A stretch of 64,000 nt of DNA from Winogradskyella sp. (GTDB lineage: Bacteria > Bacteroidota > Bacteroidia > Flavobacteriales > Flavobacteriaceae): assembly GCA_028383925.1 (NCBI GenBank), contig JAOEWO010000006.1, positions 1 to 64,000 of the forward strand, read 5' to 3'. A program made the position numbers and the translations under genes. The notes under the pieces are model-generated. The model ran no database searches and was not told the DNA's origin. It saw nothing but the letters and a program-made list of their open reading frames with translations. This document shows, one piece after another, positions 9,646 to 53,791 of this stretch (positions are counted from its first letter, which is position 1; each line of letters begins with the position of its first letter).

Positions 9646-10455
9646 TTAGTTTAAATTGAAGCTATACATATTTCCACCTTTAGATTTATTGCGCTCATCC
9701 GTAATAAGTACTGTCGTATTTGTTTTAAAACAAAGGCCTTCTTTCTGAGAATTGTGCTTAAAGGTTATGTTTTCTATGCTGCCAGAAAAGAAATCATCAG
9801 TCTTGTAATCTGTAAGTTTCCATATTTTATTATGGTTTAATAAAACTATTGTTTTTCCGTCAGCACTAATATCAGCAGCAGTAATTTTGTTTTTATCACC
9901 ATTAAAGTTATAACTAGATTTTAAGATTGCTATGTGATTACCAGTAACGTTAGGTACTTGTAAAACACTAAATGTTTTGGCTTCTTTACTAAAAATATAG
10001 TAGGCGTTGTTATAAAGAAAAAAGGCTTCAAAATCTCTAGACTTTAAATCTTTTGGTAATTGAAAATTTATAGCTGAGGCTTCTGCTTTTTCTTTAGATA
10101 AATCATTATAATTTATTTTATAAATCGTAAATTTTTCTCTCTTTTTATTGTTGTTTCCAAAGTCGCCAATGTAAATATTCCCTTTACTGTCGGTGGTTAG
10201 GTCTTCCCAGTCCTTATTTAGTGCATTAGTGATTTTTACAGTTTTTACAATTTGGCCGTCAATGTTTAGACCGTATAAATTAGTGCTGTTTCCTGCATCT
10301 TCAATAACCCAAATTAGTTTAGAATAGATGCTTATTTCTGTGCCAGAAACTTCTTTTAAATTAGAAGCTAAATCTGCTTCAAAACTAAGTTGTCCTGTAG
10401 ATTGGCAAGATGTTGTAATAAGTGTTATAAATATTAGTCTTTTGAGGTATATCAT
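9646..10455 (-). CDS. Lipoprotein with beta-propeller-like repeats (SdiA-regulated-like)
   Basis: A 269-aa protein with a lipoprotein signal (ITTSC, Cys near 17). Short repeats such as SKGNIYIGDFGNNN near 92 and ADGKTIVLLNHNKIW near 198, with scattered W/Y/D positions, suggest a beta-propeller of the SdiA-regulated or NHL kind. No catalytic motif is visible. It is convergent with the phosphoesterase gene (46 bp apart) and divergent from the flavoprotein gene, so it is probably monocistronic. The assignment rests on repeat character only. Confidence 0.75.
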   Translation of the reverse strand: MIYLKRLIFITLITTSCQSTGQLSFEADLASNLKEVSGTEISIYSKLIWVIEDAGNSTNLYGLNIDGQIVKTVKITNALNKDWEDLTTDSKGNIYIGDFGNNNKKREKFTIYKINYNDLSKEKAEASAINFQLPKDLKSRDFEAFFLYNNAYYIFSKEAKTFSVLQVPNVTGNHIAILKSSYNFNGDKNKITAADISADGKTIVLLNHNKIWKLTDYKTDDFFSGSIENITFKHNSQKEGLCFKTNTTVLITDERNKSKGGNMYSFNLN

Positions 10456-49009: not shown

Positions 49010-50572
49010 ATGAAAAAGATACATTTAGTTGTATTGTTATTAATGTCTTATGTCTCAATAGCACAAGATTTAACGGTAATAAGTGGTGGAAGTATTACAA
49101 TACACAAAGATAATTATGTTTTTGTTGGAGGTGATTTTACCAACACAGCAGGCACCGTAACTTTAAATTCAGCTTCTGATCAATATTCGTCTTTGATTAT
49201 AAACGGTACAGCCACAGGAGATGTTAATTATAAGCGTTATATAAATGCTTATACCGATAATGGTATTAGCGATGATAATGACCTTGTATCTGCACCTGTA
49301 TCGGGGCAGACTTTTGGGGCTTTTAGCAGCAATAGTGAAAATGCTAATCTTTTAGCTTCAGAGACACTGCGTGCATTTGCACCCTTTGATAAATCAGTTG
49401 GTGCTTATGTAAATTATAATACCTCTACAAATGCCAATACCGTTATAGCAGCAGGTACAGGCTACCGAGCAGCAACCAGCGATGGTGGTACGCTAACTTT
49501 TACGGGTAGTGTAGAAACAAGTACCGTAGCAATTAATATCCAAGATTCAGGACCCTTTTACGCAGATTGGAACCTTATTGGTAATCCTTACCCGTCTTAT
49601 GTAAATTTAGCGGCTTTTTTAAATCACGAAGTATCAAGTGGAGTTACCAATTTAGATATTTTAGAAAGTGCCTCAGGTATTTACGGTTATGATGGTGATG
49701 TATCAGACGGTTGGGATATCATTACCCTTGCCAACGTAGGCTCAAGACTATTGGCGCCAGGTCAAGGCTTCTTTGTTGCGGCAGATGCTGCAGACGTAAG
49801 TACTTATGATTTGGAGTTTACACCAGCGATGCGCACCACCTCAAGTGATGACGATTTTATAGCAGGGCGAAGTTCGGATAACGACCTAACCTTTTTTAAT
49901 CTTAATCTTAGTACGTCTAATAAGAGCTACAATACGGAGTTTTATTTTAATGCTAATGCTACATCGGGTCTTGATGCGGGCTATGACGCTGTTGTATGGG
50001 GTGCAGATACCTCAGGGTTTGTAATTTATTCTCATTTGGTAGAGAACAATACAGGTGCACCTATAGCATTGCAGGCCTTGGGCAATGATGATTTATCAGC
50101 TATAAGCATTCCATTAGGTGTTAATGCCAATGCAGGCGAACAGCTCACTTTTAGTATCACGGAGTTTAATTTACCAAGTAGCAGCACCGTATATTTAGAA
50201 GATAGCTTTAAAAATACCACCACCTTATTAAATAGTAGTGCTTACGTATTAACACCTGTAGTTAATCTAAGCGGAACCGGCCGTTTTTACCTCAGATTTA
50301 CAAACCATGCGCTTAGTACTACAGAAAATACATTAAGTAGTCTTAATATATTTAATGAAAGTGCTAATAAACGCGTGGTTATAAATGGTGTGCTGCAGCA
50401 ATCTACAACAGCTAGAATATATGATTTACAAGGGCGTGAGGTGGGCTCACAAGATTTAGATAGCAATAAGACATCGCAGTATATGGATGTAGGTTATTTA
50501 AGTACCGGTGTTTATGTAGTAAGCTTAACTAATGACCAGCAATCAATTTCAAAGAAAATCATTATACACTAA
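49010..50572 (+). CDS. Secreted protein with T9SS type A sorting domain
   Basis: A 520-aa protein with signal peptide (MKKIHLVVLLLMSYVSIAQ), a long beta-rich middle with Ser/Thr/Asn/Ala-rich sequence, and a C-terminal T9SS sorting domain. The tail is recognisable from LNIFNESANKRVVINGV near 440, ARIYDLQGREVGSQDL near 466 and YLSTGVYVVSLTNDQQSISKKIIIH at the very end. No catalytic motif was seen. It is first in a plus-strand set that includes a small secreted peptide and two lectin-like proteins. Confidence 0.9.
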   Translation: MKKIHLVVLLLMSYVSIAQDLTVISGGSITIHKDNYVFVGGDFTNTAGTVTLNSASDQYSSLIINGTATGDVNYKRYINAYTDNGISDDNDLVSAPVSGQTFGAFSSNSENANLLASETLRAFAPFDKSVGAYVNYNTSTNANTVIAAGTGYRAATSDGGTLTFTGSVETSTVAINIQDSGPFYADWNLIGNPYPSYVNLAAFLNHEVSSGVTNLDILESASGIYGYDGDVSDGWDIITLANVGSRLLAPGQGFFVAADAADVSTYDLEFTPAMRTTSSDDDFIAGRSSDNDLTFFNLNLSTSNKSYNTEFYFNANATSGLDAGYDAVVWGADTSGFVIYSHLVENNTGAPIALQALGNDDLSAISIPLGVNANAGEQLTFSITEFNLPSSSTVYLEDSFKNTTTLLNSSAYVLTPVVNLSGTGRFYLRFTNHALSTTENTLSSLNIFNESANKRVVINGVLQQSTTARIYDLQGREVGSQDLDSNKTSQYMDVGYLSTGVYVVSLTNDQQSISKKIIIH

Positions 50573-50798: not shown

Positions 50799-51755
50799 AT
50801 GAAACAAATTTTTACACTTTTAGCTGCCGTATTATTAACAGCAAGCACGTATGCCCAAGTGGGTGTAGGTACAACAACACCAGACAACTCAGCAGCATTA
50901 GATATTACCTCTACTACAAAAGGGTTATTAATACCAAGAATGACAGCAGACCAGCGTGATGCGATTTCATCTCCTGCAACAGGCTTGATGATTTACCAAA
51001 CAGATGGTACAGCAGGTTTTTATTTTTATGATGGTACAGTATGGACAAACCTTCTATCATCATCTTCTGCAGGTGTAGATTCTGGTTCAGTAAATGACAT
51101 TGATGGCAACAGCTATGATTTCATCACCTATGGCAACCAAGCTTGGACAATAGAAAACGCTGAGATGGAAACCTACACAGACGGTACTTCTATACCTCAA
51201 GTGACAGACGCCACAGAGTGGGAAAACCTTACCACAGGTGCGTGGAGTTACTTTGATAATGACTCTACAAAAGGGAAACTATACAATTGGTATGCGGTAA
51301 TGGGCATCCATGATGCTGCCTCACTAACAGATGTAGCCCTTAGAAAAGAATTTGCACCCGAAGGTTGGCACGTGCCAAGTTATGTCGAGTGGATCACTTT
51401 AGAAGTGTATCTAATTAACAGCGGTTACAATTATGACGGCACAAGCTCACAAGACAAAATAGCCAAAGCGATGGCATCCACAACAGGATGGACTGTCAAC
51501 ACTACAATTGAAGGAGCCGTAGCCAATGATCTAAGCTTAAACAACAGCAGCGGCTTCAACGCATTTCCTGTGGGTACCCGTGGCGGCAATGGTTCGTTTT
51601 ATGTCGAAGGCAACTTTGGAGGCTTCAGGAGTTCAACGGAGTCTAATGACAACAGTTCATGGATGCTTTATTTTAGCGGCTATGACAGTAGTCTAGTCAG
51701 CCAAGAATTTGCCGATAAGCTAGATGGCTATTCTGTTCGTTTTGTTAGGGATTAA
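50799..51755 (+). CDS. FISUMP-domain surface protein (C-type-lectin-like tail)
   Basis: A 318-aa secreted protein (MKQIFTLLAAVLLTASTYAQ). Residues 20-90 are a repeat-type adhesin start (VGVGTTTPDNSAALDITS then GLLIPRMT). Residues 97-318 are a FISUMP domain: GNQAWTIENAEMETY near 114, LYNWYAV near 163, APEGWHVPSYVEW near 187, and GGFRSSTESNDNSSW with the closing SVRFVRD. FISUMP proteins have a formylglycine-enzyme/C-type-lectin fold and are known targets of diversity-generating retroelements. The last third uses many C-ending codons, unlike the rest. It shares its N-terminus with the next gene. Confidence 0.88.
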   Translation: MKQIFTLLAAVLLTASTYAQVGVGTTTPDNSAALDITSTTKGLLIPRMTADQRDAISSPATGLMIYQTDGTAGFYFYDGTVWTNLLSSSSAGVDSGSVNDIDGNSYDFITYGNQAWTIENAEMETYTDGTSIPQVTDATEWENLTTGAWSYFDNDSTKGKLYNWYAVMGIHDAASLTDVALRKEFAPEGWHVPSYVEWITLEVYLINSGYNYDGTSSQDKIAKAMASTTGWTVNTTIEGAVANDLSLNNSSGFNAFPVGTRGGNGSFYVEGNFGGFRSSTESNDNSSWMLYFSGYDSSLVSQEFADKLDGYSVRFVRD

Positions 51756-51888
51756 AAATATTGACTCTTGGCTTTTTAAGGGCCTGGCCTTGTTCATCCC
51801 CGGCTTTTGCATCAGCGCCTTAAAACGCGTAAAAATTAAAACCATATTTCTACTTTTTATAAAATCCTAAAGAAATAAAAAAACACCA

Positions 51889-52962
51889 ATGAAACAAATT
51901 TTTACACTTATAGCGGTACTAGTATTAACTGCAACAACCTATGCCCAAGTGGGTATTGGCACAACAATACCAGACGCTTCTGCGGCATTAGATATTGCTT
52001 CTACCACAAAAGGGTTATTAATACCAAGAATGACCAATGCACAGCGTAAAGCTATTTCTAATCCAGCCGCAGGGTTACAGGTCTTTGTCACAGATTTTGA
52101 TGGAGGGACATTTTTATTTTATAATGGTACAGGTTGGAAAGAACTATTATTAACTGAGGCACGTGATACTCCAGACGCTCCCACAATAGGAACTGCCGTT
52201 CCCTTTAACCAACAAGCCACAGTTTCATTTACAGCCCCATCAAGCAATGGAGGTTCAGCGATTACTTCCTACACAGCTACCTCAAGCCCAGGTGGTATTA
52301 CAGGAACAATTAGTCAAGCAGGAAGTGGAAGTATTACAGTAACAGGTTTAACCAATGGTGTCGCTTATACGTTTACGGTTACCGCTACCAATGCCATTGG
52401 AACAAGTTTGGTAAGTGCAGTATCAAATTCAGTAGTACCTGTAGGACTACTAGAAGTTGGTGATTTTTACGGTGGCGGCGTTATTTTTTACTTATTTGAA
52501 GCTGGAGATACTGGTTATGTTACAGGTGAAATACACGGTTTAATTGCAGCAGTAGAAAACCAGAGTTCTGGTATACAATGGTATAATGGTAGTTATGTTA
52601 CAACAGGGGCAACAGGGACAGTTATAGGTACAGGAAGCGCCAATACAGATGCTATTATAGCTATACAAGGCGCAACAGAAACTAATTACGCAGCAGGTTT
52701 GGCAAAAGCCTACACTGGAGGTGGTTTTAACGATTGGTTTTTACCGAGTAAAGATGAGTTGAATGAAATGTATCTAAATAGAGTAGCTATAAACACTACA
52801 GCATCAGCAAATGGTGGTAGTAATTTTGCTGGTAATTTCTATTGGAGTTCTACGGAGTACGATGTCGGTAAAGCGTGGGTACAGGTTTTCGACACTGGTA
52901 TTCAGGCCATCGGCACTAAGTTCTTCACAAACAATAGCGTGCGTGCAGTTCGAGCTTTTTAG
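51889..52962 (+). CDS. Surface protein with fibronectin III and DUF1566 (lectin-like) domains, probable DGR target
   Basis: A 357-aa secreted protein. Residues 1-88 nearly repeat the N-terminus of the preceding gene. Residues 92-185 are a fibronectin type III domain ([35 protein letters not shown]). Residues 188-357 are DUF1566: [14 protein letters not shown] near 190, [15 protein letters not shown] near 282, [13 protein letters not shown] near 318 and the end [13 protein letters not shown]1566 is a recurrent variable domain of diversity-generating retroelements. The 3' end has the expected codon pattern (see 52840-52962). It is followed by the tandem repeat and an Avd-like relic. Confidence 0.87.
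52840..52962 (+). other. Putative variable region (VR) of a diversity-generating retroelement
   Basis: Between TATTGGAGTTCTACGGAGTA and the GC-rich end (GTGCGTGCAGTTCGAGCT), most codons have the form NNC or NNT: GTC, GGT, GTT, GAC, ACT, ATT, GCC, ATC, GGC, TTC. This is what adenine mutagenesis of AAC/AAT template codons gives. C-ending codons are rare elsewhere in this AT-rich window. No template repeat was found here, so the reading depends on domain type and context. Confidence 0.5.
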
Positions 52963-52981
52963 TTATTTAATTATTTATCAC

Positions 52982-53251
52982 TTTAGCGAAGCGATCTCAC
53001 GAACACCTATTAAGGAAATAAGAAAGGGTGCGTAATTTAGCGAAGCGTTCTCACGCACACCTATTAAGAAAATAAGAAAGGGTGCGTAATTTAGCGAAGC
53101 GGTCTCACGAACACCTATTAAGGAAATAAGAAAGGGTGCGTAATTTAGCGAAGCGTTCTCACGCACACCTATTAAGAAAATAAGAAAGGGTGCGTAATTT
53201 AGCGAAGCGGTCTCACGAACATCTATTAAGAAAATAAGAATGGGTGAGTAA
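52982..53251. repeat. Tandem repeat, five copies of a 54-bp unit
   Basis: Units begin TTTAGCGAAGCG at 52982, 53036, 53090, 53144 and 53198. Units 2 and 4 share GTTCTCACGCACACC and AAGAAAA. Units 3 and 5 share GGTCTCACGAACA, and unit 1 is close to them, so the array probably grew by duplication of a 108-bp dimer. The unit length is a multiple of three and leaves an open frame on the minus strand, but this encodes only an 18-residue repetition and is not a credible gene. Confidence 0.9.
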
Positions 53252-53294
53252 TTTAATTAGTACCGCGTAAGCGGACGATTTTTATTTTTTAAAA

Positions 53295-53530
53295 ATGGCA
53301 TTACACACAGAGCTTCCTGTATATAAGGATACGTATAAATTGGTATTAGAAATTTTTGTAAGTACCAAAAATTTCCACAAAGAAACAAGTATAGTTTGGG
53401 TAGAGATATGGAGGGCTATGTATTGGTGTTCTCAAAAAAACAAGCTGCATCTGCACCTCTAAGTCTTTAGAGGTAATAAAAAGCAATTACAAGTGCAAAA
53501 AAAGCTAGAAACATAAAAAAAAAGACGCTA
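53295..53530 (+). pseudogene. Broken Avd-like (four-helix-bundle) DGR accessory gene
   Basis: ATG at 53295 starts MALHTELPVYKDTYKLVLEI and FVSTKNFHKE, the typical beginning of DGR-associated Avd / four-helix-bundle proteins of Bacteroidota. After codon 30 the frame is lost by one base. Adding one base at 53384 restores EYKYSLGRDM. Further on, fragments VLVFS...AASAPL, then LEVIK and QLQVQKKLE in changing frames resemble later Avd helices. An ordinary Avd has about 110-130 residues. The end of the relic is approximate. No reverse transcriptase follows. Confidence 0.6.
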
Positions 53531-53623
53531 CAGTTGGAATGCTTCTTTTTTAATACTGTGCTTATGGCGTTTTAATGGTGCAATAAATACTATAAAAAGT
53601 GTATTGTGGTAGGTATTTAGTTT

Positions 53624-53791
53624 TTATTTCTTCCAAGTTCCACCATATCTGTAATCAGGATTATCCTTTTTAACGTCTATAAGGCACTCTTTACAAACAA
53701 ACACCCATGCTTTTGGTTTTTTATATTGTACGCGGTACATGGTAGAAAAATCTACGTTACAAACTTTACAGTGTTTAATGCGTTGTTTCAT
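53624..53791 (-). CDS. 55-aa zinc-ribbon-like small protein
   Basis: Minus-strand ORF of 55 codons starting MKQRIKHCKVCNVDFSTMYR and ending YRYGGTWKK. Two CxxC pairs (CKVC near 8, CKEC near 36) suggest one structural zinc. Aromatic and basic residues (YKKPKAWVFV) lie between the pairs. It looks like a conserved flavobacterial micro-protein. A truncated relative lies at 47386-47446. It could bind nucleic acid or be a subunit of a larger complex, but there is no evidence for either. Confidence 0.7.
   Translation of the reverse strand: MKQRIKHCKVCNVDFSTMYRVQYKKPKAWVFVCKECLIDVKKDNPDYRYGGTWKK

What the first reader, a model, noticed from the sequence alone, without database searches (positions are those of the whole stretch)
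50799..53530. Remains of a diversity-generating retroelement with two lectin-like target proteins
Two tandem secreted proteins share N-termini but end in FISUMP and DUF1566 domains, both known DGR variable domains. The DUF1566 end is dominated by NNC/NNT codons as expected from mutated AAC/AAT. A broken Avd-like gene lies 330 bp downstream. No reverse transcriptase or template is visible, so this would be a frozen or trans-driven DGR.
Basis: partly seen in the sequence, partly recalled or inferred. Interest (0 to 1): 0.72.

Follow-up and report, generated by a model that had tools for sequence, protein, structure and literature searches.

The report
Decayed DGR with one mutated target
This stretch of a flavobacterial genome holds the leftovers of a natural protein-mutating machine: one lectin-like protein still carries the machine's scrambled tail, but the machine itself is gone from this spot and was not found in the assembled genome.

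Summary
The DUF1566 gene (51889-52962) ends in a DGR variable repeat (52840-52959). Against the closest of 10 relatives' template repeats (L055/L056) it differs at 22 of 48 template adenines and 2 of 69 other bases. The avd-like gene 332 bp downstream is a frame-broken 5' fragment (~45 codons). A Polaribacter MAG (L058) has avd, TR and RT at the same address: target, avd, TR, RT, small CxxC ORF, tRNA-Phe, kinase gene. In the window 180 bp stand where L058 has about 1,834 bp with the avd end, TR and RT. RT and TR were not found in the 83%-complete assembly. A second lesion: a 54-bp tandem array puts the conserved hairpin 303 nt behind the VR, against 32-34 nt in the 11 relatives measured. The FISUMP tail shows no adenine bias against this TR. 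Avd stubs recur in other Flavobacteriaceae, several at tRNA-Phe. Orphan DGR targets are already described in Treponema denticola. New member of a known kind; probably frozen.

The parts
49010..50572 (+). Protein with T9SS C-terminal sorting tail; recurring neighbour of the target cassette
   Evidence: PF18962 38.4 bits; homologues upstream of targets in L039/L072, L071, L074
50590..50754 (+). 54-aa small ORF preceding the targets; recurring neighbour
   Evidence: tblastn 71-79% in L039/L072, L040, L070, L071, L074
50799..51755 (+). FISUMP (Fib_succ_major) protein; shares its N-terminus with the target but shows no VR of this DGR family
   Evidence: no adenine bias against TR; residues 293-312 are 20% identical to the G025 homologue while the last 6 are identical
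51889..52962 (+). DGR target gene: signal-peptide-like N-terminus (by eye), fn3, C-terminal Lcl_C/DUF1566 domain of C-type-lectin-like fold
52840..52959 (+). Variable repeat (VR), 120 bp, up to the stop codon
   Evidence: 22/48 adenine and 2/69 non-adenine differences to the L055/L056 TR plus a 3-nt gap; by TR base A 22/48, C 2/23, G 0/23, T 0/23
52982..53255 (.). Tandem array, 54-bp unit, 5.1 copies, between VR and hairpin
53263..53274 (.). CCGC-GTAA-GCGG, candidate DGR target-site hairpin
   Evidence: 32-34 nt after the VR in the 11 relatives measured, 303 nt here
53295..53430 (+). Broken avd: first ~45 codons, frame lost after about codon 31
   Evidence: stretch 53250-53430 is 83-93% identical in DNA to 11 loci; intact relative is bAvd PF22296, 62.7 bits, cut-off 40
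53431..53610 (.). 180 bp standing where L058 has avd 3' end, TR and RT; 53440-53481 resembles the 3' end of the small ORF that precedes targets
53624..53791 (-). 55-aa CxxC ORF, found directly downstream of the RT in L058
   Evidence: 87% in L058 (2565-2401), 81% in L075
54086..54161 (-). tRNA-Phe(gaa), 3' end facing the DGR locus
   Evidence: same place in L058, L070, L071, L081
54265..54993 (+). Type III pantothenate kinase-like gene (name recalled), right-hand chromosomal anchor

Best explanation
The locus is the remnant of a cellular diversity-generating retroelement at a tRNA-Phe gene. When the core was present (in this lineage or in the donor it came from), the TR transcript was copied with adenine-specific errors by the RT-Avd complex and the cDNA replaced the 3' end of the DUF1566 gene, changing residues on a C-type-lectin-like domain. 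The 3' part of avd, the TR and the RT were then lost, avd lost frame, and a 54-bp tandem array came to lie between the VR and its hairpin. The target ORF stays intact and now most likely encodes one fixed binding variant. Shown by sequence: VR with adenine-restricted differences, avd fragment, counterpart with avd, TR and RT at the same address, no RT or TR found in the assembly, displaced hairpin. Inferred: the mechanism of past mutagenesis, secretion, ligand binding, present inactivity. The first two rivals below are variants of this same DGR origin, so the confidences overlap.
For: VR against the TR of L055/L056: A 22/48, non-A 2/69, p 1.2e-8, uncorrected for picking the best of 10 TRs; against the G277 TR 22/47 and 3/70. 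Changes fall 10, 12 and 2 at codon positions 1, 2 and 3. Positive controls, VR beside own TR: L055 18/48 and 0/69, G277 15/47 and 0/70. Negative controls: two related DUF1566 ends, 21/44 against 18/67 and 19/67, p 0.02 and 0.03; an internal DUF1566 copy in own contig C83, 29/48 and 15/66. Synteny with L058 up to tRNA-Phe and kinase gene. Avd family of the intact relative. RVT_1 scores that relative's RT at 62.4 bits, cut-off 29.6, so the own-genome RVT_1 search should have seen such an RT. Hairpin 32-34 nt after the VR in the 11 relatives measured, 303 in the window; 303 minus 33 is five 54-bp units.
Against: The assembly is 83.2% complete, so an RT and TR elsewhere are not excluded. The TRs compared come from other genomes; 2 non-adenine differences and a 3-nt length difference remain with the best one, 3 to 18 with the others. 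The second VR of the genome (C83) has 6 non-adenine differences of 70. The FISUMP tail is also hypervariable and NNC/NNT-rich, which this explanation does not account for. Loss of function is inferred, not assayed.
Confidence: 0.85

Rival explanations
1. Trans-driven target: a complete DGR lies in the unassembled sixth of the genome and still mutates this VR and the one on contig C83.
For: Completeness 83.2%. In G277 one TR stands beside five further VR-like matches on three contigs (not read one by one). L071 and L074 share the codon-53 avd deletion, no RT was found in their genomes, and their VRs differ at 27 adenine sites and 1 other while the 150 nt upstream differ at 6 and the avd piece at 3 of 126, as if rewritten after the deletion.
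Against: No RT or TR found in the assembled part. Hairpin at 303 nt; in BPP-1 the distance matters and phage DGRs range from 4 to 34 bp (passages of PMC3240598). The flanks of L071 and L074 are mosaic (two hairpin types), so recombination may have swapped VRs. In G404 and G213, where no RT was found either, the VRs differ at 5 adenine and 1 other site against 5 of 148 upstream, as if frozen.
Confidence: 0.2
2. The core was never active here: the target with its avd stub arrived by horizontal transfer already orphaned and already diversified in another genus.
For: The stretch 53250-53430 is 83-93% identical in DNA to 11 loci, including G213 and G404 (another genus, g143), whereas the kinase stretch is 67-71% to L058, L071, L070 and L081. 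Of 29 congener tRNA-Phe loci fetched, 28 show about 1.3 kb beyond the tRNA and none of these has avd, VR or the CxxC ORF there. A stub cut at codon 53 is shared by 7 distinct loci.
Against: The window's own break (about codon 45, other spacer) was seen in no other locus fetched, and the CxxC ORF that lies right of the RT in L058 is still present, so the core may have been lost after arrival.
Confidence: 0.35
3. Ordinary DUF1566 and FISUMP paralogues under diversifying selection, no DGR history.
For: The FISUMP tail is hypervariable without a TR match.
Against: Adenine restriction, avd fragment and counterpart at the same address.
Confidence: 0.02

Closest known systems
Complete DUF1566-type DGRs of Flavobacteriaceae found here (L058, L056, L054/G277)
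   Same: Target domain, VR anchors, hairpin, avd start, and for L058 the chromosomal address
   Different: Window lacks avd 3' end, TR and RT; hairpin displaced; avd out of frame
Orphan DGR target genes of Treponema denticola isolates lacking RT and TR (PMC4891356, passages read)
   Same: Targets left behind whose VRs differ from relatives' TRs mostly at adenines
   Different: Other phylum; here an avd stub, a tRNA-Phe address and a repeat array between VR and hairpin are also seen
BPP-1 DGR (PMC3240598, abstract and passages read)
   Same: 3' VR, downstream hairpin with 4-nt loop
   Different: Phage; intact core; 8-bp stem against a 4-bp core here; loop GTAA does not fit the GRNA consensus
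Lcl C-terminal domain (PDB 8q4e)
   Different: I know of no DGR relation of that structure (recall)

Membership tests
Diversity-generating retroelement (complete) | VR differing from TR at template adenines | tested here: met
   22/48 against 2/69, p 1.2e-8, with the best of 10 relatives' TRs
Diversity-generating retroelement (complete) | DGR-type reverse transcriptase in the genome | tested here: not met
   RVT_1: two other RTs; relative's DGR RT: no match; assembly 83% complete
Diversity-generating retroelement (complete) | Template repeat | tested here: not met
   Only the two VRs found with TR queries; assembly 83% complete
Diversity-generating retroelement (complete) | Accessory protein (Avd) | tested here: not met
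   Only a frame-broken 5' fragment, about 45 of 119 codons
Diversity-generating retroelement (complete) | Hairpin near the VR 3' end | tested here: inconclusive
   Hairpin present but 303 nt away instead of 32-34; function not assayed
Diversity-generating retroelement (complete) | Target domain of C-type-lectin-like fold | tested here: met
Orphan DGR target (remnant) | VR-bearing target without RT and TR, in a genome whose relatives hold the full element | tested here: met
   limited by 83% completeness
DGR target, FISUMP protein 50799-51755 | Adenine-restricted difference to a TR and 3' anchor | tested here: not met
   28/46 against 26/59 with this TR family, no anchor; a different, unseen TR is not excluded
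bAvd family | Pfam bAvd model over cut-off | tested here: inconclusive
   Window fragment gave no family; the intact G277 protein, 95% identical over the 40-aa query, scores 62.7 bits, cut-off 40

The most novel reading that the evidence does not exclude
tRNA-Phe in Flavobacteriaceae is a hotspot where DGR loci move between genera and repeatedly shed avd-TR-RT, while the target with its hairpin and an avd stub is kept as a satellite that is rewritten in trans whenever a compatible core is present in the cell; the window is such a satellite, with growth of a 54-bp array between VR and hairpin as a way of locking a chosen variant.
Probability: 0.15. Interest if true: 0.65.

Novelty: new member of a known kind. 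Interest (0 to 1): 0.4.

Why it matters
It shows, with a counterpart that holds avd, TR and RT at the same chromosomal address, how a cellular DGR can die: the core goes, the diversified lectin stays. The recurrent avd stubs give a natural series for asking whether core-less targets are frozen or rewritten in trans, and a large survey states that its approach would not detect targets lying away from the RT (PMC8144416, passages read).

Tried and rejected
FISUMP as second target: not supported for this TR family; its tail is hypervariable against the G025 homologue and NNC/NNT-rich, so a different lost TR is not excluded. The two RTs of the own genome as DGR RTs: set aside (maturase by TIGR04416; the other by neighbourhood and by no match of the relative's DGR RT; no tree made). 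Of the congener genomes with an RVT_1 hit (15 of 68 genomes, own included) only the two small RTs of G024 and G076 were looked at, by neighbourhood; the rest were not examined, so a DGR RT elsewhere in the genus is not excluded. A second copy of the tRNA-Phe 3' end in the window: not found, up to 5 mismatches, so integration at tRNA-Phe is not shown for the window. Trans rewriting inferred from L071 against L074: kept only as a rival because the flanks are mosaic. A tract of the spacer (53440-53481) resembling the small ORF's 3' end hints at a duplication and deletion, not resolved. Literature: DGR plus Polaribacter gave one paper, on crAss-like phages by its title; of 541 papers for DGR/Flavobacteri/horizontal/tRNA (at least 3 terms) 12 were listed, of 92 for DGR/orphan/remnant/degenerate/lost (at least 4) 12; none of the listed titles concerns this locus, and of these only listings were seen.

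Full report
What is there. The window lies in contig C58 of a 2.9-Mb, 101-contig, 83.2%-complete genome. The first (50799-51755) is a FISUMP protein, the second (51889-52962) an fn3 plus Lcl_C/DUF1566 protein with a signal-peptide-like start (by eye); their first 87 residues are 69% identical. An avd-like reading frame begins at 53295 and loses frame after about 31 codons.

Finding relatives. RVT_1 found two RTs in the own genome: a group II intron maturase (TIGR04416, 351 bits) and an RT beside an ORF that looks like HsdM by eye. A 40-aa query from the avd fragment matched 2 of 68 genomes of the genus (the own one, and G090 with a broken copy beside DUF1566 genes) and 5 of 397 genomes of the family, own included. 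One of these, G277, has a complete DGR: DUF1566 target, 119-aa avd, TR, 403-aa RT. Its avd is bAvd (62.7 bits, cut-off 40) and its RT scores 62.4 bits with RVT_1; the RT best matches the RT chain 8ub7_A (3.7e-28; I recall this entry as the BPP-1 enzyme). That RT matched 8 of 397 family genomes at 1e-8, G277 itself, two at about 50% in broken pieces, the others at 37% or less, and not the own genome. A scan of genome contigs with that avd gave 35 loci.

The decisive test. A pattern scan of the fetched loci gave 10 distinct TRs and 37 distinct VRs. The window VR (52840-52959) differs from the TR shared by L055 (Polaribacter MAG) and L056 (Psychroserpens burtonensis) at 22 of 48 adenines and 2 of 69 other bases, plus one 3-nt length difference (p 1.2e-8, not corrected for taking the best of 10 TRs); against the other nine, non-adenine differences are 3 (G277) to 18. 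By TR base: A 22/48, C 2/23, G 0/23, T 0/23; by codon position 10, 12 and 2. VRs beside their own TR behave alike (L055 18/48 and 0/69; G277 15/47 and 0/70), while two related DUF1566 ends do not (21/44 against 18/67 and 19/67), nor does an internal domain copy (29/48 against 15/66). In the 300 nt upstream of the VR, differences between the window and L040 show no comparable restriction to A (22/107 A, 18/55 C, 11/66 G, 10/69 T by L040 base). The own genome has one more VR, on C83, with 23/47 and 6/70.

Same address. In L058 (uncultured Polaribacter) the order is target (cut by the contig end), avd, TR, RT, a small CxxC ORF, tRNA-Phe, kinase gene. The window has target, avd fragment, 180 bp, the same CxxC ORF, tRNA-Phe, kinase gene. 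Homology stops at 53430 (L058 550) and resumes at 53611 (L058 2385): 180 bp stand where L058 has about 1,834 bp with the avd end, TR and RT. Part of the 180 bp (53440-53481) resembles the 3' end of the small ORF that precedes the targets (83% to L040, 78% to L070).

A second lesion. A candidate target-site hairpin, CCGC-loop-GCGG, follows the VR by 32-34 nt in the 11 relatives measured (a choice of loci with a close avd, not all loci) and by 303 nt in the window. The difference to 33, 270 nt, equals five units of the 54-bp array at 52982-53255. In BPP-1 the hairpin is required and its distance matters; phage DGRs range from 4 to 34 bp (PMC3240598, abstract and passages). The loops here (GTAA, TTAA, GCAA) do not fit that paper's GRNA consensus and the stem core is short, so its role is inferred from position and conservation.

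RT and TR. The relative's RT finds nothing in the own genome, the relative's TR only the two VRs. Of 18 genomes searched, four have the RT (G277, G486, G488; in G487 it is cut at residue 152), and TR-level matches (94-100%) occur in five (those four and G485). L055 (in G485) keeps TR and avd but only a stub of the RT.

A recurrent pattern. Avd stubs ending after codon 53 and running into the same sequence, with substitutions, occur in seven distinct loci (L039/L072, L040, L070, L071, L073, L074, L081). Three of them hold an intact tRNA-Phe (L070, L071, L081); in L039 and L040 a piece of a tRNA end follows, by eye. Other cut points are about 45 (window; L077; L075 by DNA match, though its protein match runs to 69 at 75%), 72 (L067) and 18 (L088). 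No RT was found in the seven genomes (L071 lies in G485 as the match at C6 shows); one of them, G485, has a TR and avd at another locus. The stretch 53250-53430 is 83-93% identical in DNA to 11 loci, the kinase stretch 67-71% to four of them, with 78% for a tRNA-side piece of L081. The kinase gene was found in 65 congeners; 29 of their loci were fetched, one ends at the tRNA, and the other 28 show about 1.3 kb beyond it without avd, VR or CxxC ORF. I read this as horizontal spread of the locus.

Frozen or trans. For trans: L071 and L074 share the deletion, yet their VRs differ at 27 adenine sites and 1 other while flanks differ little. Against: the flanks are mosaic, and in G213 and G404, both without a detected RT, the VRs are nearly the same (5 and 1, plus a 3-nt length difference). 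For the window, absence of the core, the broken avd and the displaced hairpin favour frozen.

FISUMP. Its tail against the TR shows no adenine bias (28/46 and 26/59), but 28 of 37 tail codons end in C or T against 151 of 281 in the rest, and residues 293-312 are only 20% identical to the G025 homologue while the last six are identical. A different, unseen template stays possible.

Known or new. DUF1566 is called the most common Pfam domain of DGR targets, and 28.6% of DGRs in that study have several VRs (PMC6642488, passages). Target genes left in genomes without RT and TR are described for Treponema denticola (PMC4891356, passages). The window is therefore a new member of a known kind; the hairpin displacement and the tRNA-Phe address are details I did not see in the passages read.

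Noticed in passing
L002:1114-2727 (own genome C31): A 537-aa reverse transcriptase directly follows an ORF that looks like HsdM by eye; it stays under the NCBIfam cut-offs for group II, Drt2 and retron St85 RTs and may belong to a restriction or defence locus.
   Followed up: partly
L001:1309-2589 (own genome C38): Group II intron reverse transcriptase/maturase (TIGR04416, 351 bits).
   Followed up: partly
window 52982-53255: 54-bp tandem array; a similar unit occurs once in the Kordia locus L077 at 7910, there too between a VR and a hairpin by eye.
   Followed up: partly
L040:1080-3003: Five tandem near-identical 119-aa ORFs (GIY-YIG-like by eye) near the DUF1566 targets of G213, a sixth at 10123.
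   Followed up: no
G277 contigs C1, C2, C13, C18: One TR and five further VR-like matches plus a partial one in one genome: probably a multi-target DGR.
   Followed up: no
L055:8484-9600 and L057:8483-9700: Two loci with full-length avd and TR but an RT cut after about 20 and 151 residues: RT loss recurs with the template kept.
   Followed up: partly
L067:8001-8330: Bizionia avd match ends at codon 72 and is followed by the start of another target-like gene.
   Followed up: no
L030:5906-9292: Congener G090: two very similar DUF1566 genes with a stop-ridden avd between them.
   Followed up: partly
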